Assembly: GCF_000473265.1 (NCBI RefSeq) | Contig: NZ_KI421511.1 | Span: 3,447,560 to 3,511,559 of the forward strand | From: Amycolatopsis thermoflava N1165 | GTDB taxonomy: Bacteria > Actinomycetota > Actinomycetes > Mycobacteriales > Pseudonocardiaceae | Reading direction: 5' to 3' | Length of the DNA stretch: 64,000 nucleotides | In this document: positions 9,778-30,153 of the stretch, one piece after another | How the letters are laid out: each line of letters begins with the position of its first letter | Numbering within the stretch: position 1 is the first letter of the stretch | The notes under the pieces: model-generated | What the model saw: only the letters and a program-made list of their open reading frames with translations | Database searches by the model: none | What the model was told of the DNA's origin: nothing | Program-made: the position numbers and the translations under genes

Positions 9778-9796
9778 CACTCGAGTCCTTCCTACA

Positions 9797-11833: not shown

Positions 11834-11839
11834 GGTGGT

Positions 11840-13015: not shown

Positions 13016-13338
13016 TTTCCTTCCAGGTGGAAGACCTCGGTGAGCAACTGGAACCCCTCGTCGGGGCCGCGCCCGTCCAGGCCCGTGAAGAATTCGGCCA
13101 TCTCGGCCTGCCAGCGGGCGTTGACCTCGGTGCGGGCCATGGCCGCCTGCGCGGCTTCGAGGTCGTCGGCCTCGACGTAGCCGATCAGCAGGCCGTCGTC
13201 CCGGAGGAACAGCGAGTAGTTGCGCCATCCGGTGTCGGTCAGCGCCTGCCGCATCTCCGGCCACACGGCACGGTGCCGCTCGGCGTATTCGGCCATCCGG
13301 TCAGGCTTCACCTGCAGGCAGAAGCAGTATCGGGCCAC
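13012..13338 (-). CDS. rhaM: L-rhamnose mutarotase
   Basis: A 108-residue dimeric alpha/beta-barrel protein that interconverts alpha and beta anomers of L-rhamnose for the isomerase. Family signatures are CFCLQVKPDRMAEYAERH, WPEMRQALTDTGWRNYSLFL, and the ending WQAEMAEFF followed by LLTEVFHLEGK. The GTG start has GAGG 7 bp upstream. It follows rhaS across a short gap with a strong hairpin and overlaps rhaI by 4 bp. Length and motifs match the RhaM/RhaU family closely. Confidence 0.93.
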   Translation of the reverse strand: MARYCFCLQVKPDRMAEYAERHRAVWPEMRQALTDTGWRNYSLFLRDDGLLIGYVEADDLEAAQAAMARTEVNARWQAEMAEFFTGLDGRGPDEGFQLLTEVFHLEGK

Positions 13339-13357
13339 GATCCGTCCTCGGTGGAGC

Positions 13358-13389
13358 CCCGGCCGGGCCGCCGGTGCGGCCCGGCCGGG
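13358..13389 (-). terminator. 14-bp perfect hairpin between rhaS and rhaM
   Basis: CCCGGCCGGGCCGC (13358-13371) pairs perfectly with 13376-13389 across a 4-base loop (CGGT), 6 bases after the rhaS stop. There is no T-tract. In ABC operons a stem-loop after the binding-protein gene commonly stabilises or partly terminates the transcript, so that the solute-binding protein is made in excess. That role here is inference. Confidence 0.65.
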
Positions 13390-13395
13390 AGACTG

Positions 13396-14463
13396 TCAGA
13401 AGTTGTACTGGTCGATGTTGCTCGCGTCGAACACCGTCGGCGGGCCGAGGACGATCTCGCCGTCCTTGCCGATCGTGTACTCGCCGAGCTTGCCCGCCTT
13501 GAACTTCTGGCCCTCGACGCCGGTGATCTGGCCGGAGGCCAGTGCCACACCCGCGTAGGCGGCCAGGTAGCCGATGTCGGCCGGGTTCCACAGCGCGAAC
13601 TTGGTGACCGTGCCGTCCTTGATGTACTCGCGCATCTGGTTCGGCGTGCCGAGGCCGGTCACCGCGACCTTGCCCTTGTAGCTGGAGGAGCTGATGTAGC
13701 GGGCGGCCGCGGCGATGCCGACGGTGGTCGGCGCGACGATGGCCTTCAGGTTCGGGTAGGACTGCAGCAGGCCCTGGGCCTCCTGGAACGACTTCTGGTC
13801 GTCGTCGTTGCCGTAGGCGACCTTCACCAGCTTCAGGTTCGCGTACTCGGGCTTGGTCAGCTGCTGCTTGAACACCTCGATCCAGGCGTTCTGGTTGGTG
13901 GCGTTCGGGGTCGCCGACAGGATGGCGATCTCACCCGAGCCGCCGGCCAGCTCGCTGGCCATCTTCGCCAGCTGCTCGCCGATGCCCTCGGTGGTGGCCT
14001 GGTTGATGAACACGTCGCGGCAGTCCTTGGCCGCGTCGGAGTCGAACGCCACGACCTTGATGCCGGAGCTGCGCGCCTGGTTCAGCGACGGGCACACCGC
14101 GTTCGGGTCGTTCGCGGCGATGCCGATGACGTCCTGCTGCTGCTGGATCAACGTGTTGATGTAGCTGACCTGCGAGGACGCGCTGGCGTCGTTCGGGCCG
14201 ACGAGCTTGTACTCGCCCTTGAGCTCGTCCAGCGCGGTCTTGCCGCCACCCACCTCGATGTCCGAGTACGGGTTGTTGAGCTGCTTGGGCAGGAAGGCCA
14301 TCTTGACGCCTTCCTTGGTGGCGGCGTTCGGGTCGGCCTGCGCCGTCGACTGGGCGCCACCGCCGCCGGACGAGCTGCTGTCGTTCTTCGTGGTGCCACC
14401 GCACGCGGACACCGTCAGCACGAGTGCTGCCGACACCGCACCGGCGAGGAGTCGTCTCTTCAT
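13396..14463 (-). CDS. rhaS: Rhamnose ABC transporter substrate-binding lipoprotein
   Basis: A 355-residue periplasmic-binding-type (type 1, sugar) lipoprotein. The signal peptide ends in a lipobox LTVSAC with Cys21 as the lipid-attached residue, followed by a Ser/Gly linker. The mature domain has the family pattern VKMAFLPKQLNNPYSDIEVGG, VISIA-type loop DVIGIAANDP, and a C-terminal VFDASNIDQYNF, which is typical of RhaS. It is the fourth gene of the transporter set and delivers rhamnose to RhaPQ. A stem-loop follows the stop codon. The rhizobial naming (RhaS as binding protein, not the E. coli regulator) is used. Confidence 0.93.
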   Translation of the reverse strand: MKRRLLAGAVSAALVLTVSACGGTTKNDSSSSGGGGAQSTAQADPNAATKEGVKMAFLPKQLNNPYSDIEVGGGKTALDELKGEYKLVGPNDASASSQVSYINTLIQQQQDVIGIAANDPNAVCPSLNQARSSGIKVVAFDSDAAKDCRDVFINQATTEGIGEQLAKMASELAGGSGEIAILSATPNATNQNAWIEVFKQQLTKPEYANLKLVKVAYGNDDDQKSFQEAQGLLQSYPNLKAIVAPTTVGIAAAARYISSSSYKGKVAVTGLGTPNQMREYIKDGTVTKFALWNPADIGYLAAYAGVALASGQITGVEGQKFKAGKLGEYTIGKDGEIVLGPPTVFDASNIDQYNF

Positions 14464-14478
14464 GGGCGTTTCGCCTTT

Positions 14479-15465
14479 CTATGTGGTCGCCCGGCGCCGC
14501 AGCGCAGCCCGGAACCTGATCACGATGTTGGGCAGGAGCACCGAGATGATCAGCAGCACCCCGGTGACGATGTTGAGCGCCTCGTTCGACACGTCCTGCA
14601 GCCGCAGCGCGTTCTGCAGCGTGGCCAGCAGGACCACGCCGGCGAGCACACCCGGCAGGGTGCCCTTGCCGCCGAAGATGGACACACCGCCGAGCAGGAC
14701 CGCCGCCACGACGGCGAGTTCCATGCCGAGGCCGTTGTCGGCGCGGGCGCTGGAGTAGCGCAGCGTCCACAGCACCCCGGCCAGGCCGGCGACGAGACCG
14801 CTGACGACGTAGAGCCAGAACTTCAGCCGGGCGACGCGGATGCCGGCGAAACGCGCGGCCTGCTCGCTGGCGCCGGCCGCGAACACCGACCGGCCGACCG
14901 GGGTCGCGTGCAGCACCAGGCCGAACACCACGGCCAGCACCACCAGCGGGATCAGCATGTTCGGGATCGGGCCGTCGCCGATCGTGCCGGTCACCCACGA
15001 GGTGTAGGCGCGCGGGAAGTCGGCCACCGCGCCGTCACCGAGCACCACGAACGCCAGGCCGCGGTAGAGCGCGAGCGTGCCGATGGTGACCGCCAGCGAC
15101 GGCAGTTTCAGCACGGTCACGAAGAACCCGTTGAGCGCGCCCAGGACGGCGCCGAGCACCAGGCACAGCGGGATGATCGTCTCGATGGGCAGGCCGCGGT
15201 TCCACAGGTCACCCATCACGGCCGAGGTGAGGCCGAGCGTGCTCGCCACCGACAGGTCGATTTCGCCGGTCACGATCACGAACGTCATCGGCAGCGCGAT
15301 CAGCGCGATCGGCAACAGGTCCAGCAGCAGGAAGGTGAAGTTGCGGCTGCTGCCGAAGTTCTCCACCACGCCGGAGGCGATGAGCAGCACCAGCACCGTG
15401 ATCACGATGACGGCGGCGTCCCAGCTCGCCAGGCGGGACAGCCAGGCCGGCCGCTTGTCAGACAT
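14479..15465 (-). CDS. rhaQ: Rhamnose ABC transporter permease RhaQ
   Basis: A 328-residue inner-membrane protein of the BPD_transp_2 family (ribose/rhamnose permeases), with about 8-10 hydrophobic segments. The family motif region ELAVVAAVLLGGVSIFGGKG lies late in the protein, as does the glycine-rich VTIGTLALYRGLAF. Its start overlaps the end of rhaP by 8 bp. It should pair with RhaP to form the channel energised by RhaT. Confidence 0.9.
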   Translation of the reverse strand: MSDKRPAWLSRLASWDAAVIVITVLVLLIASGVVENFGSSRNFTFLLLDLLPIALIALPMTFVIVTGEIDLSVASTLGLTSAVMGDLWNRGLPIETIIPLCLVLGAVLGALNGFFVTVLKLPSLAVTIGTLALYRGLAFVVLGDGAVADFPRAYTSWVTGTIGDGPIPNMLIPLVVLAVVFGLVLHATPVGRSVFAAGASEQAARFAGIRVARLKFWLYVVSGLVAGLAGVLWTLRYSSARADNGLGMELAVVAAVLLGGVSIFGGKGTLPGVLAGVVLLATLQNALRLQDVSNEALNIVTGVLLIISVLLPNIVIRFRAALRRRATT

Positions 15466-16494
15466 GGGAATCCCTCTTCTTCAGTGACTTGGCCACCCGC
15501 ACCGCGACGAGGCGGTCGGCCCCGATCGCGAGCAGGATCAGCGCGCCGACGATGGCCTGCTGCCAGAACTGGTTGATGTCGAGGACCGCCAGGGAGCTGC
15601 CGATGACGGTGAGCAGCAGGGCGCCGAGGCCCGCGCCCCACACCGTGCCGCTGCCACCGAACACCGCGACCCCGCCGACCACCGCGGCGGCGACCACGTT
15701 CAGCTCGTAACCGTTGCCCGCGGCGGCGTCGATCGTGCCGAAGCGCGCGGCGAACAGGACACCGGCGACACCGGCCAGCGCGCCGCTGACCAGGAACGCG
15801 GCGATCGTGTTGCGGCCGACCTTGATACCGGCCAGCTCGGCGGCCTGCGGGCTCGACCCCATCGCGTACAGCTCGCGGCCGGCGCGGTAGTTGCGCAGCA
15901 CGATCCCGGCCACGACCAGCACGATCACCGCGATCAGCACCAGCCACGGGATGCCCAGGATCGAGGAGTTGCCGAACTTCAGGAAGTGCCCGGGCAGCTC
16001 GTCGGCGTTGATCTGCTCGCCGCCCGCCCAGAAGTAGGCCGCGCCGCGGAAGGCGTAGAGCGTGCCGAGGGTGACCACCAGCGCGGGCACCTGGCCGAAC
16101 CGGACCAGGAACCCGTTGACGACACCGCAAGCGGCGCCGACCGCGACGCCGACGACCAGCGCGACGATCACCGGCATGCCCTGGTTGGCCTGCAACAGCG
16201 AGCCGACCGCGAACGCGGACAGGCCGAGCACCGACCCGACCGACAGGTCGATGTTGCGGGTGATCATCACCGTCGCCTGGCCGACCGCGAGCACGGCCAG
16301 GATCGCGGTGCCGAGCAGGATGTCGCGGATGCTCTGCGCGGACAGGAACCGCGAGTTCTGCGTCGCGGTGAACGCCACCAGCGCGATCAACGCGAGGACG
16401 ATGCCGGCCTCGCGCGCCTTGAACAGGCCGCCGAGGGAGAACTTCCGGGACACCGACCGGCTCGTCGTCGTGGGAGCCACCACCTTCGTCGCGT

Positions 16495-16498
<4 letters not shown>
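15458..16498 (-). CDS. rhaP: Rhamnose ABC transporter permease RhaP
   Basis: A 346-residue permease of the same family as RhaQ, with a hydrophilic N-terminal tail, MITRNIDLSVGSVLGLSAF, VVTLGTLYAFRGAAYF, and the ELNVVAAAVVGGVAVFGGSG loop that contacts the ATPase. It begins with GTG overlapping the rhaT stop (GTGA) and overlaps rhaQ at its end. The two permeases are related but clearly distinct, consistent with a heterodimeric channel. Confidence 0.9.
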
Positions 16499-18012
<1,514 letters not shown>

Positions 18013-18026
18013 CGCGACCTCCGAAA

Positions 18027-18045
18027 TGAAAGGTTTCACAAACCT
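18027..18045. promoter_or_regulatory. Candidate RhaR operator before rhaT
   Basis: TGAAAGGTTTCA (18027-18038) is an inverted repeat of two TGAAA half sites. It is interlaced with a second one, AGGTTT-CAC-AAACCT (18031-18045). It lies 15 bp upstream of the rhaT start and shares AGGTTTG and AAAC..TTCA with the site before the rhamnosidase. Confidence 0.6.
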
Positions 18046-19570: not shown

Positions 19571-20323
19571 CATCGCCTCCACGCGGTACCTCGTCTCGAG
19601 TCCCCCGGCGACCAGGGCGGCGTCGGCGACCTCCGTCAGCGGCGTCGTCGCGAAGCTGGTCACCGCGACCACCGCCGCGCCCGACTCCTTCGCCCGCCGG
19701 GCCGCGCTCACCGTCTCCCGGGTCGCTCCGGTGTGGCTCACCGCCACCACCACGTCCCCCGGCCGCAGCAATCCCGCGCGCACATGCTGGACGTGCACGT
19801 CGGCCGGGGCCTCGGCCGCGATGCCCAGCGTCAGCAGCCGGTAGGCGGCGTCCTGCGCGAGCGGCGCGCTCGTCCCGACCCCGAGCACCAGCACCCGTGG
19901 CGCCGCGGTCAGCAACCTGACCGCCCGCTCCAGCGCCGCCGCGTCCACGCTCGACCTGGCGCGTTGCAGTGCGTCGGCACTGCTCGCGGCCAGCTTCGCC
20001 AGCACCTCGGCGGGAGAATCGCCGCGGTCGATGTGCTCCGGCGACCGGTCCCCGACCAGCGGTGCGAGGTCCTGCGCGAGCGCGATCTTCGCGTCCTGGA
20101 AGCCCTTGAACCCCAGGCTCTGGCACGCCCGCACCACGGTCCCGACCCCGGTGCCCGCGGCGGCGGCGATCTCGCTGACCGACATCCGCACCACGTCGGA
20201 CCCGCGTGCCAGCAGCACCTGCGCGGCCCGCGCCTCGCTCGGCGGCAGGGACCGCAACGCGGCCCGCGCCCGTTCGGCCACTGATCCGGGCACCCGCGAC
20301 GCCTCGTCGATTCCGCCGGTCAC
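19445..20323 (-). CDS. RpiR-family regulator with SIS domain
   Basis: A 292-residue regulator. Residues 17-90 are the RpiR helix-turn-helix (MSVSEIAAAAGTGVGTVVRA and a following LGFKGFQDAKIAL). Residues from about 135 form a SIS sugar-phosphate-binding domain (VLVLGVGTSAPLAQDAAYRL, VVVAVSHTGATRETV). It starts with GTG and has no Shine-Dalgarno, but TATCCT lies 6 bases upstream of the start, so a leaderless transcript is likely. It is divergent from the maleate-isomerase-like gene across a 38-bp gap carrying an 11-bp inverted repeat, its likely target. Effector unknown, probably a phosphosugar. Confidence 0.85.
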   Translation of the reverse strand: MTGGIDEASRVPGSVAERARAALRSLPPSEARAAQVLLARGSDVVRMSVSEIAAAAGTGVGTVVRACQSLGFKGFQDAKIALAQDLAPLVGDRSPEHIDRGDSPAEVLAKLAASSADALQRARSSVDAAALERAVRLLTAAPRVLVLGVGTSAPLAQDAAYRLLTLGIAAEAPADVHVQHVRAGLLRPGDVVVAVSHTGATRETVSAARRAKESGAAVVAVTSFATTPLTEVADAALVAGGLETRYRVEAMTSRLAHLVVLDALFVSLLLAEPGRSAEAQALVADVLSEHRY

Positions 20324-20325
20324 GG

Positions 20326-20359
20326 GCGCAGGATACGGGACGGTTCGGGTACCCTGCGC
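20326..20359. promoter_or_regulatory. Symmetrical divergent leaderless promoters with inverted repeat
   Basis: GCGCAGGATAC (20326-20336) is repeated in inverse as GTACCCTGCGC (20349-20359) with one mismatch. Each arm holds a -10 hexamer (TATCCT on the minus strand, TACCCT on the plus strand) exactly 6 bases before the respective start codon. One palindrome therefore covers two leaderless start regions and would let a single RpiR dimer control both genes. Confidence 0.6.
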
Positions 20360-20361
20360 GT

Positions 20362-21093
20362 ATGAAACGCCACGTTCAGGGGCCGGAACCCCAGACGGGC
20401 GTCGGCATCGTCGCGCCCTACGACTTCGCCCGTGACCGCGAGCTGTGGCGGTGGGTGCCGCCGACCGTGAGCCTGTTCATCGCCCGCACCGGCGGCTCGC
20501 CCGAGGGCGACAACCTCGATTCGATGTCGGCGCTCAACCGGCCCGCCACCGTCCGCCGCCCGACGCGTGAGGTGTGCGCGGTCGGCGCCGAGGTCGTGAT
20601 CTACGCCTGCACCGCGTGCAGCTTCGTCGGCGGCACGCTCGGCGAGGCCGCGCTGCGCCAGGCCATGCTGGACGCAGGCGCGCCCCGTGCGCTGACCACG
20701 TCGGGGGCGGCGGTGTCCGCGCTGCGCACCGTCAAGGCGCAGCGGGTCGCGGTCGTGCACCCCTACGAGCGCCCGGTGGGCAACCGCCTGCGCGACTTCC
20801 TGTGCACGGCCGGGTTCGACGTCGTCGCGTGCACGCCGCTGGGCATCCCGGTGCGCGAGGTGCTGACCGCCGGCTACGCCGAGGTGGCGGAGCTGATCCA
20901 CGCGGGCGACCGCCCGGACGCGGACGCGATCTTTGTCAGCTGCACCGCACTGCCGACGTACGACCTCATCGCGCCCCTGGAAGCGGAGCTCGGCAAGCCG
21001 ATCGTGACCGCCAACCAGGCGACGGTGTGGGCGGCGCTGCGCGCGCTGGACCTGAACGCGACCGGGCCGGACCAGACGCTGCTCAACCTCTAA
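20362..21093 (+). CDS. Maleate isomerase-like protein (Asp/Glu racemase superfamily)
   Basis: A 243-residue enzyme of the superfamily that includes maleate cis-trans isomerase, arylmalonate decarboxylase and Asp/Glu racemases. Two cysteine motifs fit the family's catalytic pair: YACTACSF (Cys83 the likely nucleophile) and FVSCTALPTYD (Cys194). VVHPYERPVGNRLRDFL and ANQATVWAALRALDL complete the family pattern. The start at ATG 20362 is probably leaderless. It stands alone, controlled by the divergent RpiR gene and overlapping the methyltransferase stop by 4 bp at its end. Substrate cannot be read from sequence; a dicarboxylate or hydantoin-like compound is plausible. Confidence 0.75.
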   Translation: MKRHVQGPEPQTGVGIVAPYDFARDRELWRWVPPTVSLFIARTGGSPEGDNLDSMSALNRPATVRRPTREVCAVGAEVVIYACTACSFVGGTLGEAALRQAMLDAGAPRALTTSGAAVSALRTVKAQRVAVVHPYERPVGNRLRDFLCTAGFDVVACTPLGIPVREVLTAGYAEVAELIHAGDRPDADAIFVSCTALPTYDLIAPLEAELGKPIVTANQATVWAALRALDLNATGPDQTLLNL

Positions 21094-21866
21094 GGCAGCC
21101 GCCGCACCGCCCACGCCCGGGTCAGATACGTCGTCTCCACGACGTCGTGCCCGGCCAGCGCCTCGCGCGCGTGGTCGAGGAACTTCGCGAACGCCTCGGG
21201 GCCGAGCTGCGCCTGCACGTCGTTAGCCGAGCGCCACACGCCGAGGTAGTGCTCGACCGTCTGCCGCACCACGTGGCGGCCCTCCAGGTAGAGCGGCGGG
21301 CCGTAGCCGGGCTCGGCCGCCAGCCGCGCGGTCAGCGTCGCGGTGACACCGGACCGGCCCGAGGACACCCGCCGCAAATCGGGCTTGAGCCGCCGGATCT
21401 CGCCTTCGATCTCGGCGAGCAGCGGGTTCGCCTCGACGTCGCGCGGGTTCCACAGCGCGGCGAACCACCCGCCCGGCCGCAGCACGCGCCGGAACTCCCG
21501 CAGCCCGGCGTCGAACTCGACCCAGTGGAACGACGACGCCATGGTCAGCAGGTCGGCCGACGCGTCGTCCAGCCCGGTGCGTTCCCCGCTGCCCGCGCGC
21601 CAGGTGATCCGCAGCCCGTAGCTGTCCTCGATGCCCTGCTCCCGCATCGCGTCGTTGGGCTCGACGGCGGTCAGCGACGCGGGCAGCCGCGCGGCCAGCA
21701 TCCGGCTCCAGATGCCGGTGCCCGCGCCGACGTCGGCCACGTCGAGGCTGCACACCGGCCGCGCGCACAGGCCGAGGATCGCGTCCCGCACCGCGGGCGA
21801 GTAGCCCTCGCGGTAGCGCGAGTAGCTTTCCGCGAGCGTGGTGAAGTCACCCTGCGCCAGGGTCAT
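21090..21866 (-). CDS. SAM-dependent methyltransferase of the phosphoramidate cassette
   Basis: A 258-residue class I methyltransferase. Motif I is DVADVGAGTG (residues 42-51); SFHWVEFDAGLREFRRVLRP is the usual Methyltransf_11 mid-region; a C-terminal lid follows. ATG 21866 overlaps the sulfotransferase-like stop as ATGA; it is the last gene of the seven-gene run. In Campylobacter the phosphoramidate is O-methylated by cluster-encoded methyltransferases (Cj1419, Cj1420), so methylation of the phosphoramidate or of the acceptor is a reasonable guess. General small-molecule methyltransferase is all the sequence itself proves. Confidence 0.8.
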   Translation of the reverse strand: MTLAQGDFTTLAESYSRYREGYSPAVRDAILGLCARPVCSLDVADVGAGTGIWSRMLAARLPASLTAVEPNDAMREQGIEDSYGLRITWRAGSGERTGLDDASADLLTMASSFHWVEFDAGLREFRRVLRPGGWFAALWNPRDVEANPLLAEIEGEIRRLKPDLRRVSSGRSGVTATLTARLAAEPGYGPPLYLEGRHVVRQTVEHYLGVWRSANDVQAQLGPEAFAKFLDHAREALAGHDVVETTYLTRAWAVRRLP

Positions 21867-22714
21867 GATCGTGCCCTTTCTCCGAGGTGGTAACCGAACC
21901 GGCGGGCGAGCGCGGCGACGTGCGCCCGTCCGAAGAGGTCCGCGGTGGACGGGCTCATCCACGTCCGCCATTCCTCCGGCTGTCCCCGCCGGAGGATGCC
22001 GGGACCGTCGCCGCCCTGGTCGCGTTCGCGGCGGCGCACGGTCTGGAAGTCGCTGCGCAGCACCGCCGCGGCGATGTTAGAGTCCGAAATGGACAGTCCG
22101 AACGCGCGCAGTCCGGCCCGCAACGTCGGGAGCGGGTCGCGTTTGAGTTCTTCGAACGTCGTGATCGCCGACCGGGGCAGGCGGCCGGCGCCGCAGAGCC
22201 AGCGGCGGTGGAAGTCCGCCCAGTCGTCGAGCCGGTCGAGACCGGTCGGGCCGGGGCGGCACAGCCAGTCCTCGAACGAGGTGGCCAGCCGGTCGAGCGG
22301 GTCCTGCACGAACTCGGTGCGGAAGCGGTACCACGAGTACAGCGCGTCGCGGGGATCGCGCACCAGGATCCACACGCCGAGCAGCGGGCGGCCGGTGAAG
22401 AACCGCGGCGTGAGGTGGGTCTTGACGAACCGGGGCCAGGGCCGCCGCGACGCGCCCGGGGTCGCCAGGCGCTCGCGGTAGTCGTCGTAGGCGGAAACCG
22501 GTTCGCTGGCGCCGTCCTCCCGCAGGGCCTCGGTGTAGGCGTCGGCGTAGTTGAGGCCCAGTTCGGCGAGGATGCCGCCCAGGTAGGACTGGCCGGAGCT
22601 GCCGATGCTGGCGACGAGCACGTCCCGCGGGCCGAGCCGGGCGATGTTGTCCTGGTACAGCGCGCTGTAGCGGTCCTGCAGGCCGTGCAGCATGTAGAAC
22701 ACCTTGTCGGTCAT
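21863..22714 (-). CDS. Sulfotransferase-fold protein, candidate phosphoramidate transferase
   Basis: A 283-residue cytosolic sulfotransferase-like protein. The 5'-phosphosulfate loop region is VASIGSSGQSYLGG (34-47), a variant of the usual SYPKSGTTWL, and the 3'-phosphate region is VRDPRDALYSWYRF (118-131), a good match. Sulfotransferases use PAPS, a nucleotide with a 3'-phosphate. The same operon encodes a kinase predicted to add a 3'-phosphate to CDP-amidate. I therefore infer that this protein moves the phosphoramidate group from 3'-phospho-CDP-amidate to an acceptor. A true sulfotransferase is the alternative. Start overlaps the MFS stop as ATGA; stop overlaps the methyltransferase start. 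Confidence 0.7.
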   Translation of the reverse strand: MTDKVFYMLHGLQDRYSALYQDNIARLGPRDVLVASIGSSGQSYLGGILAELGLNYADAYTEALREDGASEPVSAYDDYRERLATPGASRRPWPRFVKTHLTPRFFTGRPLLGVWILVRDPRDALYSWYRFRTEFVQDPLDRLATSFEDWLCRPGPTGLDRLDDWADFHRRWLCGAGRLPRSAITTFEELKRDPLPTLRAGLRAFGLSISDSNIAAAVLRSDFQTVRRRERDQGGDGPGILRRGQPEEWRTWMSPSTADLFGRAHVAALARRFGYHLGERARS

Positions 22715-23973
22715 GTCGTCCGCCGCCCCAGTGCGCATCCGGCGAGCCCGCCGAGCATCGCGACCGCGGCGGCGAGCAGGAAGGCGAACGCGTGGCCGCA
22801 CTCCAGCGCGGTCGCGAGCACCGCGACGACCAGCGCGCCGCACAGGTACTTCGCCGTCTCGTAACAGCCGTAGGCGCTGCCGCGGTCCGCGGGCTCGGCG
22901 TGCCGCCCGGCGGCGCCGTTGAGCGTGACCGCGGAGACGGCCGCGCCGAGGCCGACGAGCACCAGCCCGGGCAGGACGTGCTCCAGCGCGAGCAGGACGA
23001 GCCCGGCCGCGCAAACCGCCTGCGCGCCACCGAACACGGTCGTCCACACGTGACGGTTCAGCAGCCGTGCGGCCAGTGGCGCGCCGACCAGGACGGCGAT
23101 GCCGAGCGGGGTGAAGGTGAGCCCGGCTTGTAACGGGGTGAGGTCCTGCTGCAGGAACAGGAGTCCGACGAAGACCGTGCCGTCGTAGGCGAAGACGAAC
23201 CCGGGCAGCCCGGCCACCGCGGCCCGCAGCGACCGGTCCCGCACGACCCCGCGCGGCAGGAGCCGCACGACCGGCACGACGAGCACGAGCCCGACGGCGG
23301 CAACGGCGAGGTCGTGGTTGGTGATCGCGTACACCAGCAACGCGGCCGCGGTGACGGCCAGGGCGGCGCCGAGCAGCCCGGGCCGGGGCGCACCCCGGCG
23401 GCGGTCCTCGTCGAGGACCCGTGCGGCGGTGATCGCCACGGCCGCGACGACCGGGGCGGTCAGCAGGAACAGGAAGCGCCAGCCGAGGCCCTGCGTGATG
23501 AGCCCGCCGGTGACCGCGCCACCCGCCGCGCCGAGCCCGCCCGCGACGGCGACCGCGGCGAACACCCGGTCGCGCACGGCTTCCGGGCGCAGGGCGCTGA
23601 TGGTGGCGAACGCGTTGGGCACGGCGAAGGCCGCGCCGAACCCCTGCACGGCCCGCGCCGCGAAGAGCACCCACGCGTCCCAGGCGACGCCGGCGAGCAG
23701 CAGGCCGGCGACGAACACGGCCAGCCCGGCGACCAGCATCCGCCGCCGCCCGAACGCGTCCCCGCAGCGGCCTCCGGTGAGCAGGGTCCCGCCGAGCGCG
23801 ACGGCGTAGGCGGTCAGCACCCACTGCCCGTCGACCGGCCGGAGCCCGAAGCCGGTCTGGATCGCGGGCAGCGCCACGGCGACGACGAGCCCGTCGAACA
23901 CCGCGACGAAGTTGGTCAGCGACAACACGATCGCCACCACGACCGTCCGGCCGGGCGCGTGCACGAGCGTCAC
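22711..23973 (-). CDS. MFS drug/metabolite exporter of the cassette
   Basis: A 420-residue major facilitator protein with 12 or more hydrophobic segments. Family landmarks: FVAVFDGLVVAVALPAIQ in helix 1 (motif D type), GGRCGDAFGRRRMLVAG (motif A), and GAAGGAVTGGLITQGLGWRF (the proline-poor motif C region) as in EmrB/QacA-type exporters. It starts with GTG overlapping the cytidylyltransferase stop (GTGA). Position between the nucleotide-activating enzymes and the transferase suggests export of the finished product and perhaps self-protection. Confidence 0.82.
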   Translation of the reverse strand: MTLVHAPGRTVVVAIVLSLTNFVAVFDGLVVAVALPAIQTGFGLRPVDGQWVLTAYAVALGGTLLTGGRCGDAFGRRRMLVAGLAVFVAGLLLAGVAWDAWVLFAARAVQGFGAAFAVPNAFATISALRPEAVRDRVFAAVAVAGGLGAAGGAVTGGLITQGLGWRFLFLLTAPVVAAVAITAARVLDEDRRRGAPRPGLLGAALAVTAAALLVYAITNHDLAVAAVGLVLVVPVVRLLPRGVVRDRSLRAAVAGLPGFVFAYDGTVFVGLLFLQQDLTPLQAGLTFTPLGIAVLVGAPLAARLLNRHVWTTVFGGAQAVCAAGLVLLALEHVLPGLVLVGLGAAVSAVTLNGAAGRHAEPADRGSAYGCYETAKYLCGALVVAVLATALECGHAFAFLLAAAVAMLGGLAGCALGRRTT

Positions 23974-24716
23974 GACGCCACCTCCGCGCCGGACAGCACC
24001 TCGTCCAGCTCCCGCAGCACCGGCTCCCCCACCACGCAGTCCCGCGCGGAGTCGAACTCGTGCCATGGCCCCGGCACCGGGACGGCCCGCACGGCGAACT
24101 TCCGCGCGATCAGCCGCCGCAGCAGACCGGTGGTGTCGCGGCGGGTGTCCGAACGCGACAGCTCCGCGGACAGCTCGGCCCACCCCGCCGGCTCCAGCTT
24201 GAGCAGCCCCAGGTACTGCCCCGCTACCTCCTCCAGAGTGGACGGTGTGCCGCCGATGTCGGTCAGCGTGCCGTCGGCAACCGCGAACGTCTCCGCGTCG
24301 ACCAGGGGGTCGCCGAAGCGGCGGGACCACTGCGTGAGCCAGTCCGGGTCGTACCCGACCACCAGCGGCCCCGGCGCCGACGCCACCGCGGTCACCGCCG
24401 CCGGGGTGAACACGATGTCGCCGTAGGCCACCACGACCGGGCCGGCTTCGAGCCATTCGCGGGCGCAGGCCAGCGAGTCCACCATGGACGACTCCGCCCA
24501 CGCCGCGTTGTGGAAGCGGGTCAGCGGCACCCGCTCGAACTGCCACGAGCACCACCCGGTCACCACCGCGACCTCCCGCGCCCCGGCCAGCGCCAGCGCG
24601 GAGACCTGCCGGTCAAGCAGCGTGCGGCCCGCCAGTTCGACGAGGCACTTCGGCCGGTCGCCGGTCGCCGCGCCCATCCGGGATCCGCGTCCCGCGGCCA
24701 GGATCACCGCCCGCAT
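23970..24716 (-). CDS. Nucleotidyltransferase, candidate CTP:phosphoglutamine cytidylyltransferase
   Basis: A 248-residue sugar-nucleotidyltransferase-fold enzyme. The NTP loop LAAGRGSRMG (6-15) and Lys23 bind nucleotide, and AYGDIVF carries a metal-binding aspartate. The stretch WSRRFGDPLVDAE plus GQYLGLLKLE resembles the Cj1416 family of C. jejuni, which couples CTP to L-glutamine phosphate, as I recall that family. GGAGG lies 5 bp before the ATG even though this start is 104 bases inside the upstream amidotransferase gene. The trio glutamine kinase, glutaminase-like hydrolase and this enzyme makes the cytidylyltransferase assignment likely. Phosphocholine or sugar-phosphate activation is the fallback. 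Confidence 0.75.
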   Translation of the reverse strand: MRAVILAAGRGSRMGAATGDRPKCLVELAGRTLLDRQVSALALAGAREVAVVTGWCSWQFERVPLTRFHNAAWAESSMVDSLACAREWLEAGPVVVAYGDIVFTPAAVTAVASAPGPLVVGYDPDWLTQWSRRFGDPLVDAETFAVADGTLTDIGGTPSTLEEVAGQYLGLLKLEPAGWAELSAELSRSDTRRDTTGLLRRLIARKFAVRAVPVPGPWHEFDSARDCVVGEPVLRELDEVLSGAEVAS

Positions 24717-25311
24717 TCCGACCTCCGAACACCTCGCTGAACAGGTCGACGTCCTCGTCGTGCACCGGGTCCGTGCGCTCGGGGTGCCACATGATCCCGG
24801 CCAGCGGCAGCGACCGGTGCCGAATCGCCTCCACCACCGGCCCGCACCGCGCGGTCACCGCGAACTCCGGGGGCGCCTGCAGCACAGCCCAGTCGTGGTA
24901 GCTGTTGACGGTCCGCCCGCCGCGCGGCCCGGTCACCCGGTGTTCGACCGCCACGTGCCCGCGCACCCGCCGCAGCCGGGCGCCGAACGCGTCGAGCACC
25001 AGCTGCATCCCGCGGCACACTCCGATCACCGGCAGGCCGCGTTCCAGGGCGCGGCGCAGCAGGTAGCGTTCGAGGGCGTCCCGCTCCGGGGCCGCGCCCA
25101 GGTCGTTGCCGCCGGTCAGCACCAGCCCGCGGCACCCGGTCCGCCACAGCAGCTTCGCCGCGGCGACCGGGTCGAGCGGCATCGGCACGCCGTCGAACCC
25201 GCATGCGGCGAGGAACGACCACCACCGCACGTCGAGCGCGAGCCGCACCTCGCCGTGTTCGTTGGCGGGCAGCAGCCGCTGGGTCACCGCGAGCAGTCCG
25301 GACACCGTCAC
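24613..25311 (-). CDS. Class I amidotransferase (peptidase C26), candidate gamma-glutamyl-CDP-amidate hydrolase
   Basis: A 232-residue glutamine-amidotransferase-fold hydrolase. Catalytic Cys99 is in GVCRGMQ, and His176 and Glu178 in WHPERTD complete the triad. The opening AVTQRLLPANEHGEVRLALD and the LTGGNDLG loop match the Cj1417 type rather than PuuD. Cj1417 removes glutamate from gamma-glutamyl-CDP-amidate, releasing cytidine diphosphoramidate. GTG 25311 overlaps the kinase stop (GTGA). Its 3' end runs 104 bases into the next gene, giving a Gly/Arg-rich tail of about 30 residues beyond the domain. Read-through or a recent loss of the original stop would explain this. Confidence 0.78.
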   Translation of the reverse strand: MTVSGLLAVTQRLLPANEHGEVRLALDVRWWSFLAACGFDGVPMPLDPVAAAKLLWRTGCRGLVLTGGNDLGAAPERDALERYLLRRALERGLPVIGVCRGMQLVLDAFGARLRRVRGHVAVEHRVTGPRGGRTVNSYHDWAVLQAPPEFAVTARCGPVVEAIRHRSLPLAGIMWHPERTDPVHDEDVDLFSEVFGGRNAGGDPGRGTRIPDGRGDRRPAEVPRRTGGPHAA

Positions 25312-25814
25312 CACAACCCGGTCCGGGCGCAGTAGGTGAAGATCCGGTCGGCTGCGGCGCGCGGCGAGGTGGCGCCGTAGTTGGTGATCCGCAGGTCGGG
25401 CGCCACCGGGAGCTCGGCGGCCTGCCCCGCGCCGACCACCTCCGCGCCGCCGGCGTAGATCCCCTTCGGATCGCGGCGGCGCAGCTCCTCCAGCGGCACG
25501 TCGAGGAACACCTCCGCGTACCGGCTCAGGTGGCGGCGGTTCCACTGGTGCACCTCGTGCCGCAGCGAGATGGTCGCGCACACCACGATGTGCCCCTGTT
25601 CGGCGAGCAACCGGCACAGCCGCCCGTAGGTCAGCGCCAGCTGCCTGCGCGCCTCCGCGCCGAAGGACCGGGCATCGAGCGCCGCGCGGACGGCGTCGCC
25701 GTCGAGCAGCACCGGCTGCACCCCCGCGCGCCGGAGCCGCTCGACGAGCTGCACCGCCACCGCCGACTTGCCCGCGCCGGACAGGCCGGTGATCCACACG
25801 ACCCCGCCCGTCAC
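25308..25814 (-). CDS. APS-kinase-like P-loop kinase, candidate CDP-amidate 3'-kinase
   Basis: A 168-residue member of the adenylylsulfate kinase family: Walker A GLSGAGKS (10-17), LLDGDAVR (37-44), ISLRHEVHQWNR (the lid region), and DPKGIYAGG. The usual family features are present but the sequence is shorter and divergent. No ATP sulfurylase (CysD/CysN) gene is in the window, so PAPS synthesis is not obviously its task. In C. jejuni the homologous Cj1415 phosphorylates the 3'-OH of cytidine diphosphoramidate. Given its three neighbours, I prefer that role. It begins with GTG overlapping the upstream stop and ends inside the GTGA of the next gene. Confidence 0.76.
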   Translation of the reverse strand: MTGGVVWITGLSGAGKSAVAVQLVERLRRAGVQPVLLDGDAVRAALDARSFGAEARRQLALTYGRLCRLLAEQGHIVVCATISLRHEVHQWNRRHLSRYAEVFLDVPLEELRRRDPKGIYAGGAEVVGAGQAAELPVAPDLRITNYGATSPRAAADRIFTYCARTGLW

Positions 25815-28180
25815 GACGCCCGCGCTTCCGGCTCGGGCCGGCCCGCGACGGGGACCGGGCGCACCAGTTTCGCGGCCGCGTCCACTTCCAACGCCCCGGC
25901 GCGCAACCAGTTGCGGAACTGCGTCTCGCCGACGCCGATCGCGGCCGGGATGCCGAGTTCCAGCGCGCGGATCGCCATGTGCGAGTTGGCCCCGCCGAAC
26001 GCCGTGACCAGGCCGGCGATGCCCTTGGTGAAGATCCAGTCGTAGCCGGGGTCGGCCGCCGTGATCATCGCGATCGCCCCGGCGGGATCGTCCCCGGCGC
26101 TCACGTCGGCGACCCGCGCCGCGACCCGGGACTGGGTCACGAAGTTCGCCTCACCCGGCAGCGCGACGAACGACGCCAGCTCGGCCGCGCCGGTGATCAC
26201 CGCCGGCGCGCACAGCGATTCGGTCAGGGCGTGCCGGGAGCTGCCGCGCTCGATGGCCTCGTGCAGGACGGCCGAGTCGGTGCGCACCGAGCCGGTGAGC
26301 TGGGACAGGGCGTCGACGGTGGCGTAGGACAGGTCGTCGGCGGTGAACCCGAGCCGCTCGCCAGCGCGGCGCGCCTCGACCAGGATTTCGCTGAGCACAC
26401 GGGAGAACTGGAGTTTGCCGTACTCGCGGGCGGACACCGCGGAGGTGACGAAGCGGAACAGGTCGCGCTCGGTGCCGGGCATGCGGTGGGCGGCCAGCAG
26501 TTCGCGCACGTCCCGCGCCTGCGCCGGGGTCGGGTGGAACACCGGCGGGTGCGGCGGGGTGTCGCGGATCGACCAGTCGAAGTAGCGGTCGGGCTCTTCG
26601 TCGTAGCGGGCGGAGAGGATGTCGTAGGTGCCGGGGCGGAGGTGGCCGTAGCGGTCGAGGAAGGTGCGGCGGTCGACGGTGCAGAAGTCGCGCTGCATCT
26701 CGGTGCTGACCGTGGTGGCGCTGCCGAGCAGGGCGTCGGCGTCGGCCGGGGACAGCGTGCCGGTGGCGACCAGGCTGCGCACCAGCGCCGTGGCGGCGAA
26801 GGCCGCGCGGGCGACGCCGGCGAAGGGCAGGGTGCCCTGGGTGCGGCAGAGGCGGACGAGCTCGCCGATGCGGTCCGGCGACCAGCGGGGCCGGCGGCGC
26901 ACCTGCCACCGGGACAGCTGGTCCAGTTCCGCCAGGTCGCGCGTGAACGGGCCGGACGGGCTCATCATGCGCACGGTCAGCACACGCAGGGCCCGCACCA
27001 GCGCGGCGGCCTCGGCGTGGTCGAGCACGTTCGCCTCGCACAGCCGGGCCGCGTCGCCGGGGGTGCCGAAGTGGAACGACGACAGGGCGATCCCGAACTC
27101 GACCTTGTCGTGCAGCCCGGGATTCGCCCGCAGCCGCGTCAGGTAGTGGCGGACCAGCCGGGCGGCGGTGCGGTCGTCGAGTGCGGCGGGCACCAGCGAG
27201 CTGAAGCTGGCGCGGGTGTCGATGTAGGCGAGCCCGCCGAGGTCGACGAGCAGCGGGGTGCCGCGCAGGTCGCGGTAGCCGTAGCGGAACCGGGACTCGG
27301 CCCAGATGCGGTCGGTGATGAGGCGGCGGTAGAGCGACAGCGCGAGCGGGCGGGGCCGGACGCCGATCATCTCGGCGGGGTTCCAGTCGGGCATGACGCC
27401 GAGGACGGTGTCGCGGCTCAGCGCGGGCGGTCCGGCGCTCTGCAGGGTCGCGACCTGGGCCTGGCAGGCTGCGACGGCGGCCCGGTGCCGCCGCCGGGAC
27501 AGCGGGAGGCGGGCGGTCGCCAGTGGCCGGACCTGGAACAACACGAGCCGCCCGTCCCCGGCGACGCCGAACTCGAACTCGAACGGCTCGTCCCCGCTGA
27601 GTTGTTCGAGCTCGGCGATCAACGCGGGCAGCCCGACGAGCAGCGGCGTCGGGGGCAGCGGGTCGGGGCCGGGCAGGAAGTACCAGGTCCGCACCCCTGC
27701 TCGCCCGGAGGTGACCTCGGCGGTGTCGGCGCTCTCGGTCCAGTTCACGACGCGGTAGGGCGCGCCACCACTGGGTTCGCACGAGGAGACGACGCCGCTG
27801 GCCACCGGGTCGCGCAGCTGCGGCTGGACCAGCACCTGGTTGTCCGGATGGTCGTCGAAGGACCGGACCACGATGTCGATTGCCCGCCTCAGCTCCTGCC
27901 AGCCGTGCACATCGGACAGTGACAGGTAGCGCCCCGCGTTGGAGAACCCGGCCTGGTCCTCGTCCCGGCTGCTGCTGCGCACGATCAACGGCGCACTCGA
28001 CCAGCTGTGCCCGCGCACCCGGTCCAGCACGCCGAGCGGATCACCCCGCCACCGGTCGACGGTGAAGGACTCCATCGGCAGCACAACGGCCGACCGGACC
28101 AACGGCGCGAGCCTGGCGAGCGTTTCGGCCTTGGTGCCGAACTCGAAGGACTCCGTCGCCGGGGAAACAGGCGCGTGCAT
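25811..28180 (-). CDS. PEP-synthase-like protein, candidate L-glutamine kinase
   Basis: A 789-residue two-domain phosphotransferase. Residues about 15-230 are a PPDK-type ATP-grasp (FGTKAETLARL, VRSSSRDEDQAGFSNAG at 67-83, FQVRPLATA near 220). The C-terminus has the swivelling phosphohistidine domain with GGANSHMAI and His734 as the phosphate carrier. There is no PEP/pyruvate barrel at the end, so it is not a PEP synthase or PPDK. The layout equals C. jejuni Cj1418, the ATP-dependent glutamine kinase that makes the amide phosphate. It is the first gene of the seven-gene run, with GGGAG upstream of ATG 28180. The next gene overlaps its stop by 4 bp. Alternative: another PPDK-like small-molecule kinase (rifampin phosphotransferase type). 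Confidence 0.78.
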   Translation of the reverse strand: MHAPVSPATESFEFGTKAETLARLAPLVRSAVVLPMESFTVDRWRGDPLGVLDRVRGHSWSSAPLIVRSSSRDEDQAGFSNAGRYLSLSDVHGWQELRRAIDIVVRSFDDHPDNQVLVQPQLRDPVASGVVSSCEPSGGAPYRVVNWTESADTAEVTSGRAGVRTWYFLPGPDPLPPTPLLVGLPALIAELEQLSGDEPFEFEFGVAGDGRLVLFQVRPLATARLPLSRRRHRAAVAACQAQVATLQSAGPPALSRDTVLGVMPDWNPAEMIGVRPRPLALSLYRRLITDRIWAESRFRYGYRDLRGTPLLVDLGGLAYIDTRASFSSLVPAALDDRTAARLVRHYLTRLRANPGLHDKVEFGIALSSFHFGTPGDAARLCEANVLDHAEAAALVRALRVLTVRMMSPSGPFTRDLAELDQLSRWQVRRRPRWSPDRIGELVRLCRTQGTLPFAGVARAAFAATALVRSLVATGTLSPADADALLGSATTVSTEMQRDFCTVDRRTFLDRYGHLRPGTYDILSARYDEEPDRYFDWSIRDTPPHPPVFHPTPAQARDVRELLAAHRMPGTERDLFRFVTSAVSAREYGKLQFSRVLSEILVEARRAGERLGFTADDLSYATVDALSQLTGSVRTDSAVLHEAIERGSSRHALTESLCAPAVITGAAELASFVALPGEANFVTQSRVAARVADVSAGDDPAGAIAMITAADPGYDWIFTKGIAGLVTAFGGANSHMAIRALELGIPAAIGVGETQFRNWLRAGALEVDAAAKLVRPVPVAGRPEPEARAS

Positions 28181-28335
28181 GGGGCCGCTCCCTCACGGTT
28201 CGATGACAACGCCGCGACACCGAACACGCCGCGACGTATCCGCCAAGGTAACGCCGGAAGAAGCCAAACCATCGGGGGCGATCTTTGCCAGGGAGCGCAA
28301 AGCAGGTGCACTTGATCTTTGAACCCAAGGTAGCT

Positions 28336-28480
28336 GGGTGGTCATCCCGTCGCCTGACACGTGACGATCACCTTGAGCCAGGGCCGCAACCCGCGCTGGG
28401 TCCGGCGGCCGAGAACACAAAGCTTGCGGCCCTGGCTCAAGGTGATATGCACAAACCGGAAGGCGACGGGATGACCACCC
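28336..28480. repeat. Large interrupted inverted repeat upstream of the phosphoramidate cassette
   Basis: Left arm 28336-28389 and right arm 28424-28480. The outer 20 bp (28336-28355 with 28461-28480) and inner 21 bp (28369-28389 with 28424-28444) pair perfectly, with an unpaired internal loop (13 and 16 bases) and a 34-base tip. The sequence TTGATCTTTRAACCC flanks it as a direct repeat at 28312-28326 and 28560-28574. It could be a small non-autonomous mobile element or a structured leader or terminator. No real gene is seen in 28181-28797. Confidence 0.75.
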
Positions 28481-28626
28481 GGCGACCACCTCGCCAAGGT
28501 GAGCCGAGGCACCCAACCCCTGGTCATCCCGGAGCCTGCCCGTCCGGCGAGGACTTCTTTTGATCTTTAAACCCGCGCTGACGCGCGGAAAGCGCCTCAC
28601 GGCGCCGGACGGTCACCTTCCGACCA

Positions 28627-28744
28627 CCCCCGCCCCCGATGCCTGATTGTGTTTCAGTCGCCGAGCAGCCGTGTCAAGGCGGGAAAGCGTGCCTTGACAC
28701 GGCTGGTCGGCGACTAAAGATCGGCTGTGGATCGGGGGCGGGGG
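28627..28744 (-). terminator. Nested long hairpin after the MHS transporter gene
   Basis: Inner stem: 25 bp (28656-28680 with 28691-28715, one mismatch), loop of 10. Outer stem: CCCCCGCCCCCGAT (28627-28640) with its complement at 28731-28744. It starts 54 bp after the stop of the minus-strand transporter gene, so it probably ends that transcript and insulates the cassette downstream. No T-tract is present, as is usual in actinomycetes. Confidence 0.6.
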
Positions 28745-28797
28745 AGGTCTGGTTGGGGTAGTCGGTCTTCTTGCGTTGCCAGCTTGCGGTTGCTGGG

Positions 28798-30153
28798 TCA
28801 GGAGGGTGCTAGTGCCTCTTCCTCTTCGGTGACCGGTGTCCGGCCGGGGATGCGGGTCGGGTGGTTGATGGGTACTCCGGCGGTCTCCGGCATCAGCATG
28901 ATGGGCACGATGGCGATCGCGGCGGCGGCCATCAGGTAGAACGCCGGGATGGCCGTGTTGCCGGTGCCGTCGATCAGTGCGGTGATCACCAGCGGCGCCG
29001 TGCTGCCGAACGCCGCGGTGGACGTCGAATAGCCGATTGCGAAGCCGCTGTACCGGTTGCGGGTGGGGAACATCGCGGGCAGCGCCGAGCCGATCGTGCC
29101 GAGCATCAGCACCAGCAGCACCGACAGCATCGCCATGCCCACCACCGCGCCGAACACCGACCGGGTCTCCAGCAGGGTGATCGCAGGCCAGCTCCCCACC
29201 AGGAAACCGATCGCGGCCGTCAGCAGCAGCGGTTTGCGGCCCACCCGGTCCGACAGCGCACCCACCGCGTTGACGACGAGCAGCATCCCGATCATGAGCC
29301 CGAGCGGGATCAGCAGTGACGCAGTGTCACCGAGTTCGAGCACCTCCGTGAGGTACGTCGGCATGTAGGCGATCAACGTGTACATCGCCACGTTGAGCAG
29401 GATGACGAACCCGATCAGGTTCAGCAGCTGCGGCCACATCTTCGTGAACGTCTCCCGCAACGGCACCCGCGACGTGGCGCCCGCCCGTTCCGCCTTCTCG
29501 AACGCGGGCGTGTCGGCCAGCTTCGCGCGCAGGTACCAGCCGACCAGTCCGAGCGGACCCGCCACCAGGAACGGGATGCGCCAGCCCCAGCTGTTCAGCG
29601 CCGCTTCGGACAGTCCCAACTGGACAGCCGTGGCGAGCAGGGCGCCCACGACGTTGCCGACCAGCGTGCCGAACTCCAGGAACGAACCGTAGAACCCGCG
29701 CCGCTTGTCCGGCGCGTACTCGGCGATGAACGTCGCCGCCCCGCCGTACTCGCCGCCGGTGGAGAACCCCTGCGCCAGCCTCGCCAGCAGCAGCAGGATC
29801 GGCGCCGCCACCCCGATCGTCTGGTAGTTCGGGATCAACCCGATGACGAACGTCGCGCCCGACATCATGATGATCGTGAACGACAGCACGCGTCGGCGCC
29901 CGAACCGGTCGCCCAGCGGGCCCAGGATGATGCCGCCGAACGGCCGCAGCACGAACGGGATCGCGATCCCGGCGAAGACCAGCAGCAGTCGCGCCGTCTC
30001 GTCGGCGTCCGGGAAGAAGTTCAGGCCGATGCTGGTCGCGAGGTAGGCGTAGATGCCGTAGTCGAACCATTCCACGGCGTTGCCCATGGCCGCGCCGGCC
30101 ACGGCACGGCGGACGGTGCGCTCGTCGGGTGGGGCTGCGGAGGTTTCCGTCAT
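28798..30153 (-). CDS. MHS-family MFS transporter (ProP/ShiA type)
   Basis: A 451-residue metabolite:proton symporter with 12 membrane spans. The metabolite:H+ symporter signatures are clear: GNAVEWFDYGIYAYLA in helix 1, FGGIILGPLGDRFGRRR (motif A), and LARLAQGFSTGGEYGGA in helix 4. Compatible substrates include proline, betaine, shikimate, alpha-ketoglutarate and other acids; nothing here decides which. I start at the internal MTETSAAPP; the longer form (ATG 30171 or further) has no ribosome site. It is divergent from the HAD phosphatase gene. Confidence 0.88.
   Translation of the reverse strand: MTETSAAPPDERTVRRAVAGAAMGNAVEWFDYGIYAYLATSIGLNFFPDADETARLLLVFAGIAIPFVLRPFGGIILGPLGDRFGRRRVLSFTIIMMSGATFVIGLIPNYQTIGVAAPILLLLARLAQGFSTGGEYGGAATFIAEYAPDKRRGFYGSFLEFGTLVGNVVGALLATAVQLGLSEAALNSWGWRIPFLVAGPLGLVGWYLRAKLADTPAFEKAERAGATSRVPLRETFTKMWPQLLNLIGFVILLNVAMYTLIAYMPTYLTEVLELGDTASLLIPLGLMIGMLLVVNAVGALSDRVGRKPLLLTAAIGFLVGSWPAITLLETRSVFGAVVGMAMLSVLLVLMLGTIGSALPAMFPTRNRYSGFAIGYSTSTAAFGSTAPLVITALIDGTGNTAIPAFYLMAAAAIAIVPIMLMPETAGVPINHPTRIPGRTPVTEEEEALAPS

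What the first reader, a model, noticed from the sequence alone, without database searches (positions are those of the whole stretch)
21090..28180. Complete cytidine diphosphoramidate (P-N bond) pathway in an actinomycete
Four adjacent minus-strand genes match, in domain type and as a set, the C. jejuni enzymes Cj1418 (L-glutamine kinase), Cj1416 (CTP:phosphoglutamine cytidylyltransferase), Cj1417 (gamma-glutamyl-CDP-amidate hydrolase) and Cj1415 (CDP-amidate kinase), which build the activated donor for the capsular O-methyl phosphoramidate. Seen directly: a PPDK-type ATP-grasp plus phosphohistidine domain without a PEP barrel, a C26 hydrolase with Cys99/His176/Glu178 and an AVTQR start, a CTP-type nucleotidyltransferase with WSRRFGDPL and GQYLGLLK, and an APS-kinase-like P-loop enzyme. 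All are overlapping, followed by exporter, sulfotransferase fold and methyltransferase. No capsule genes are nearby, so the product could be a secreted phosphoramidate natural product or a modified glycan. Phosphoramidates are rare in actinomycetes, and I know of no described cassette like this.
Basis: partly seen in the sequence, partly recalled or inferred. Interest (0 to 1): 0.93.

Follow-up and report, generated by a model that had tools for sequence, protein, structure and literature searches.

The report
Actinomycete phosphoramidate (P-N) decoration cassette
A soil bacterium of an antibiotic-producing genus carries what looks like a full gene set for making and attaching a rare phosphorus-nitrogen group, worked out so far in Campylobacter capsules, and related bacteria seem to use the same set on quite different natural products.

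Summary
Seven overlapping minus-strand genes (21090-28180) encode relatives of L-glutamine kinase (A), CDP-amidate kinase (B), gamma-glutamyl-CDP-amidate hydrolase (C) and phosphoglutamine cytidylyltransferase (D), an MFS exporter (E), a sulfotransferase-fold protein (F) and a methyltransferase (G). A-D, usually with G, recur together in many phyla. New here: F. It has the PAPS-sulfotransferase fold and keeps the 3'-phosphate Arg, but its family lacks the P-loop Lys and Trp of ordinary sulfotransferases (0 of 122 each). In 200 Pseudonocardiaceae genomes all 6 with A also have F, once about 374 kb away; a seventh has decayed F and G without A-E. The F-G-A-C-D-B set also lies in terpene, NRPS-like and PKS-like surroundings in other actinomycetes. 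Best reading: 3'-phospho-CDP-amidate is a PAPS-like donor; F transfers phosphoramidate to a hydroxyl, G O-methylates it, E exports the product. The donor pathway is very likely; the roles of F and G are inferred; the acceptor is unknown. No enzyme activity is shown. New variant of a known kind.

The parts
25811..28180 (-). A, L-glutamine kinase-like (789 aa)
   Evidence: NF004508 746.5 bits, cut-off 501; 128 of 130 conserved columns kept, His734 identical in 80 of 80
25308..25814 (-). B, CDP-amidate kinase-like, APS-kinase fold family (168 aa)
   Evidence: NF004041 145.5 bits, cut-off 127; apsK 92.9, cut-off 138.7; 26 of 26 conserved columns; 40% identical to the genome's CysC domain
24613..25311 (-). 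C, gamma-glutamyl-CDP-amidate hydrolase-like (232 aa)
   Evidence: NF045546 is the best model, 96.6 bits, under its cut-off of 250; Cys99, His176, Glu178 in 75 of 75
23970..24716 (-). D, CTP:phosphoglutamine cytidylyltransferase-like (248 aa)
   Evidence: NTP_transf_3; 31 of 31 conserved columns; 15 of 120 listed relatives labelled L-glutamine-phosphate cytidylyltransferase by JGI
22711..23973 (-). E, MFS exporter (420 aa)
   Evidence: MFS_1 146 bits; NCBIfam hits are efflux families, all under cut-off
21863..22714 (-). F, sulfotransferase-fold protein, proposed phosphoramidate transferase (283 aa)
21090..21866 (-). G, SAM methyltransferase, proposed O-methylation of the phosphoramidate (258 aa)
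   Evidence: Methyltransf_11 59.5 bits; G-like genes near A in many loci; 33 of 33 conserved columns

Best explanation
The operon makes and exports an O-methyl-phosphoramidate ester. [quoted passage not shown] D couples the phosphoglutamine to CMP from CTP; C removes glutamate and leaves CDP-amidate; B phosphorylates the 3'-hydroxyl, giving 3'-phospho-CDP-amidate, a PAPS look-alike. F, a sulfotransferase-fold enzyme without the usual P-loop Lys and Trp, moves the phosphoramidate group to a hydroxyl of an acceptor. G methylates the phosphoramidate oxygen (order of F and G open) and E exports the product. Shown here: the gene set, its conservation, the predicted fold of F, its altered P-loop, its co-occurrence with A. 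Taken from the C. jejuni literature: the donor-forming reactions. Inferred: the roles of F, G and E. Unknown: the acceptor.
For: Model matches of A, B and C (7 further cassette C proteins also match NF045546 best). A, B, C, D and G-like together in 42 of 65 non-actinomycete loci; conserved columns kept. [quoted passage not shown] F: sulfotransferase fold, 3'-phosphate Arg119 in 124 of 124, Lys and Trp positions 0 of 122. Co-occurrence of F with A: 6 of 6 A genomes in 200, 8 of 8 in 41 relatives, 13 of 14 actinomycete loci; F unlinked but present in G032; F and G decayed where A-E are missing (G014). Sulfotransferase-fold neighbours of the cassette in other phyla.
Against: C lies far under its model's cut-off and D has no model. 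No Cj sequence was compared directly. G369 has A over the cut-off but no F hit, and no B, C or D was called in the 20 kb read; G616 has a partial F and no A. L021 has no F beside the cassette (its genome seems to have one on another contig). Distances of A and G, and A and F, correlate only 0.31 and 0.44, against 0.76-0.85 for A with B, C, D. His100 of F is replaced in 9 of 123 members. G is a common methyltransferase type and could act on the acceptor. No acceptor gene was recognised.
Confidence: 0.77

Rival explanations
1. A-D make a P-N donor, but F is an ordinary PAPS sulfotransferase (and B an APS kinase), so that the product carries a sulfate beside, or instead of, a phosphoramidate.
For: F has the Sulfotransfer_1 domain and the SULT fold; B is 40% identical to the genome's CysC domain and its NCBIfam family is named adenylyl-sulfate kinase.
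Against: P-loop Lys and Trp gone in 122 of 122 members with a residue there, against 0 of 4 ordinary actinomycete sulfotransferases (a small control). F follows A across genomes. No ATP sulfurylase in the operon; the genome's CysN/C, with a weak Sulfotransfer_1 match about 5 kb away, is elsewhere.
Confidence: 0.12
2. The same chemistry decorates a cell-surface glycan, as in Campylobacter, and not a secreted small molecule.
For: The known use is on capsular sugars (PMC11800397, passages).
Against: No glycan assembly genes among the neighbours annotated; an efflux-type MFS gene lies inside the operon; related cassettes sit among terpene, NRPS-like and PKS-like genes.
Confidence: 0.2
3. The four genes are unrelated homologues of a rifampin phosphotransferase, PuuD, phosphocholine cytidylyltransferase and CysC that happen to adjoin.
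For: Public automatic names of D relatives are mostly phosphocholine cytidylyltransferase or choline kinase.
Against: Model scores and the co-occurrence of the four genes across phyla.
Confidence: 0.03

Closest known systems
C. jejuni CDP-phosphoramidate 3'-phosphate pathway (Cj1415-Cj1418) with MeOPN transferases Cj1421/Cj1422
   Same: Same four enzyme types, hence probably the same donor; a methyltransferase gene beside them
   Different: No capsule genes nearby; an exporter in the operon; a small sulfotransferase-fold protein F as proposed transferase. How Cj1421/Cj1422 relate to F was not tested.
PAPS-dependent cytosolic sulfotransferases (SULT, PF00685)
   Same: Fold, 3'-phosphate Arg, mostly the catalytic His
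   Different: P-loop Lys and the following Trp are absent; goes with the P-N pathway across genomes
Phosphoramidate natural products of Streptomyces (phosphoramidon, talopeptin, cinnamoylphosphoramide)
   Same: P-N compounds of actinomycetes; cinnamoylphosphoramide inhibits BChE (PMC6212887 and PMC6429109, passages)
   Different: No cassette of this type is given for them in the passages that I saw; nothing ties any of them to this operon

Membership tests
CDP-amidate (cytidine diphosphoramidate) pathway | All four enzyme types encoded together | tested here: met
CDP-amidate (cytidine diphosphoramidate) pathway | Hydrolase C reaches the curated cut-off of the gamma-glutamyl-CDP-amidate hydrolase model | tested here: not met
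   96.6 bits against a cut-off of 250; it is the best model, and 7 of 7 further cassette C proteins are also best with it and also under the cut-off (88-130 bits). The cut-off defines NCBI's name, not the pathway, so I speak of 'like'
CDP-amidate (cytidine diphosphoramidate) pathway | Conserved residues of each enzyme kept | tested here: met
   Columns conserved among cassette proteins; the Cj proteins were not in the set
CDP-amidate (cytidine diphosphoramidate) pathway | Sequence match to Cj1415-Cj1418 themselves | not tested
   Sequences not reached; the two primary papers tried are not held
CDP-amidate (cytidine diphosphoramidate) pathway | Glutamine phosphate and CDP-amidate formed | not testable with these tools
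   Needs the enzymes
PAPS-dependent sulfotransferase, for F | Sulfotransferase fold and 3'-phosphate site | tested here: met
PAPS-dependent sulfotransferase, for F | P-loop PKSG with Lys, and the following Trp (roles recalled) | tested here: not met
   0 of 122 for each; 4 of 4 ordinary ones have both
Rifamycin phosphotransferase / PEP synthase, for A | Passes those curated cut-offs | tested here: not met
   29.4 bits against 999 for rifamycin phosphotransferase; 38 bits or less for the PEP synthase models listed, all under cut-off

The most novel reading that the evidence does not exclude
Sulfotransferase-fold enzymes were turned, perhaps repeatedly, into phosphoramidate transferases that use 3'-phospho-CDP-amidate as a cytidine counterpart of PAPS. 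The six-gene set F-G-A-C-D-B is then a portable module by which actinomycetes put an O-methyl phosphoramidate on terpenoids, peptides, polyketides and other scaffolds: a hidden class of natural organophosphates.
Probability: 0.65. Interest if true: 0.9.

Novelty: new variant of a known kind. Interest (0 to 1): 0.82.

Why it matters
It would carry a pathway worked out for a bacterial capsule over to natural-product biosynthesis, offer a candidate for the transfer step with a clear chemical logic (a PAPS-like nucleotide and a sulfotransferase fold), and give a genomic handle (F beside A, C and D) for finding natural organophosphates, perhaps including orphan ones such as cinnamoylphosphoramide. 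The claims can be tested with seven ordinary genes of a soil bacterium.

Tried and rejected
Rejected: rifampin phosphotransferase, PuuD and ordinary CysC for A, C, B. Rfam (gathering threshold) and tRNA scans of the window found nothing. Sigma-70 promoter and terminator scans of 20000-29000 gave no more than shuffles do. PDB sequence searches: A matches only in its phosphohistidine part (PEP synthases, enzyme I); best matches of C and B are a protein named Lin1909 and CysN/C chains; D and G match only general nucleotidyltransferases and methyltransferases. My first neighbourhood clustering was swamped by antisense ORFs and replaced. My gene caller, trained on 21 window genes, missed some genes (for example F in G032, L022 and L024, D in L023); these came from six-frame ORFs or the genome search. 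The model of the Lachnospiraceae neighbour is weak overall (pLDDT 61.3); its fold match rests on residues 81-250 (blocks of 63-94). The profile matches of F to the two neighbour groups are short and moderate (probability 85 and 88). The plain rule 'every A genome has F' fails at class level (G369).

Papers. Searches that listed no paper describing a CDP-amidate cassette in actinomycetes or a sulfotransferase-fold phosphoramidate transferase, with the papers listed of those found: searches (3 of 3; 20 of 2,725; 20 of 43; 4 of 4; none found; 13 of 14; 2 of 2; none found; 2 of 2), 82 (3 of 3). The lists are capped, and the library lacks most subscription papers and all bioRxiv preprints. PMC6429109, PMC10971088, PMC3907429, PMC11800397 and PMC6212887 were seen as passages; other papers only as listings.

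Limits of counts. Searches were separate draws of 200; the handles listed agree and I take them as the same set. In the 41-relatives count 30 of 31 Sulfotransfer_1 matches had loci and were scored. One search kept 80 of 443 encoding stretches.
Full report
What is there. Between 21090 and 28180 on the minus strand lie seven genes in the order A, B, C, D, E, F, G. Five junctions overlap by 4 nt; C and D overlap by 104 nt. The window belongs to an 8.69-Mb genome. Close relatives of A (96% identical, Amycolatopsis tucumanensis) and of F (97%, A. thermoflava) point to an Amycolatopsis. Upstream lie an MFS gene and a HAD gene, downstream an arylmalonate-decarboxylase-like gene on the plus strand, an RpiR-type regulator and a sugar-catabolic operon. 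I recognised no gene that would make an acceptor in or beside the operon.

The donor pathway. Against NCBIfam A matches NF004508 (746 bits, cut-off 501, a family that NCBI calls hypothetical), B matches NF004041 (145.5, cut-off 127) better than apsK (92.9, cut-off 138.7), and C matches gamma-glutamyl-CDP-amidate hydrolase best (96.6 bits, under the cut-off of 250; next model 42 bits). Seven C proteins of other cassettes are also best with that model and also under its cut-off (88-130 bits); of two B proteins of other phyla both pass NF004041 and one also passes apsK. D has no model of its own; 15 of the 120 relatives listed are labelled L-glutamine-phosphate cytidylyltransferase by JGI, most of the other named ones choline kinase or phosphocholine cytidylyltransferase. 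A scan of GTDB genomes with A gave 443 encoding stretches, of which the best 80 (79 loci) were kept. In the 65 of these that are not from class-level actinomycete relatives (14 are), the genes within 6.5 kb of A are ABCDG 42, ACD 9, ACDG 4, ACG 3, ABCD 2, A alone 2, ABDG 1, AC 1, ABG 1; some contigs are short, and G means any methyltransferase that resembles G. The window proteins keep nearly all strongly conserved columns. [quoted passage not shown] The genome's own CysN/C lies about 0.56 Mb away, so B is not needed for sulfate activation.

Co-occurrence. In 200 Pseudonocardiaceae genomes the F profile (E <= 1e-15) hits 7 and NF004508 over cut-off hits 6; all 6 A genomes have F. They belong to 4 genera, so they are not 6 independent events. 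In G032 F lies about 374 kb from A. The seventh F genome, G014, has at the same site (HAD, decarboxylase-like and RpiR genes beside it) F and G in pieces and none of A-E among the genes called. Among 41 relatives 8 of 8 A genomes have an F-type protein of 274 bits or more. In 394 genomes of the class, A is over cut-off in 2: ours, and G369, which has no F hit and in which no B, C or D was called in the 20 kb read. F-profile hits in that set are 6: ours, a partial one in G616, which has no A, and four ordinary sulfotransferases. Of the 14 actinomycete loci, 13 carry F; the exception, L021, appears from identical scores to be genome G009, which has F on another contig. Over 15 cassettes, distances of A correlate with those of B 0.85, C 0.76, D 0.79, F 0.44 and G 0.31, each reached by at most 1 of 500 shuffles; the shuffles ignore relatedness.

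Mechanism. Gln and ATP by A; CTP by D; loss of glutamate by C; 3'-phosphate by B; transfer by F; methylation by G; export by E. The donor steps are known for the relatives and very likely here (about 0.9); F as transferase about 0.75; G on the phosphoramidate about 0.65; a secreted small product about 0.75. The acceptor is unknown.

Novelty. The donor chemistry is known. Within the searches listed under Tried and rejected I found no description of this cassette in actinomycetes, of its use across natural-product clusters, or of a sulfotransferase-fold phosphoramidate transferase. Hence a new variant of a known kind.

Noticed in passing
window 20362-21093 (+): Arylmalonate-decarboxylase-like gene (PF17645), convergent with G and overlapping its end by 4 nt; a homologue lies at the same place in L100, L102 and L103.
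   Followed up: partly
window 8356-18039 (-): Sugar-catabolic operon with a class II aldolase/dehydrogenase fusion, a protein with a weak L-arabinose-isomerase C-terminal match, and a ribose-type ABC importer; perhaps rhamnose.
   Followed up: no
L120 9915-11444 (genome G014): F and G in broken pieces at the orthologous site, with no A-E among the genes called: a decayed cassette.
   Followed up: partly
L123 8872-11553 (genome G369): An A homologue over the model's cut-off without B, C, D or F called nearby; possibly another function in the same family.
   Followed up: no
L062 2660-5158, and 17 loci in all: A protein of about 830 aa beside the cassette in gut Firmicutes, without a Pfam match, whose C-terminal part is predicted to have a sulfotransferase fold.
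   Followed up: partly
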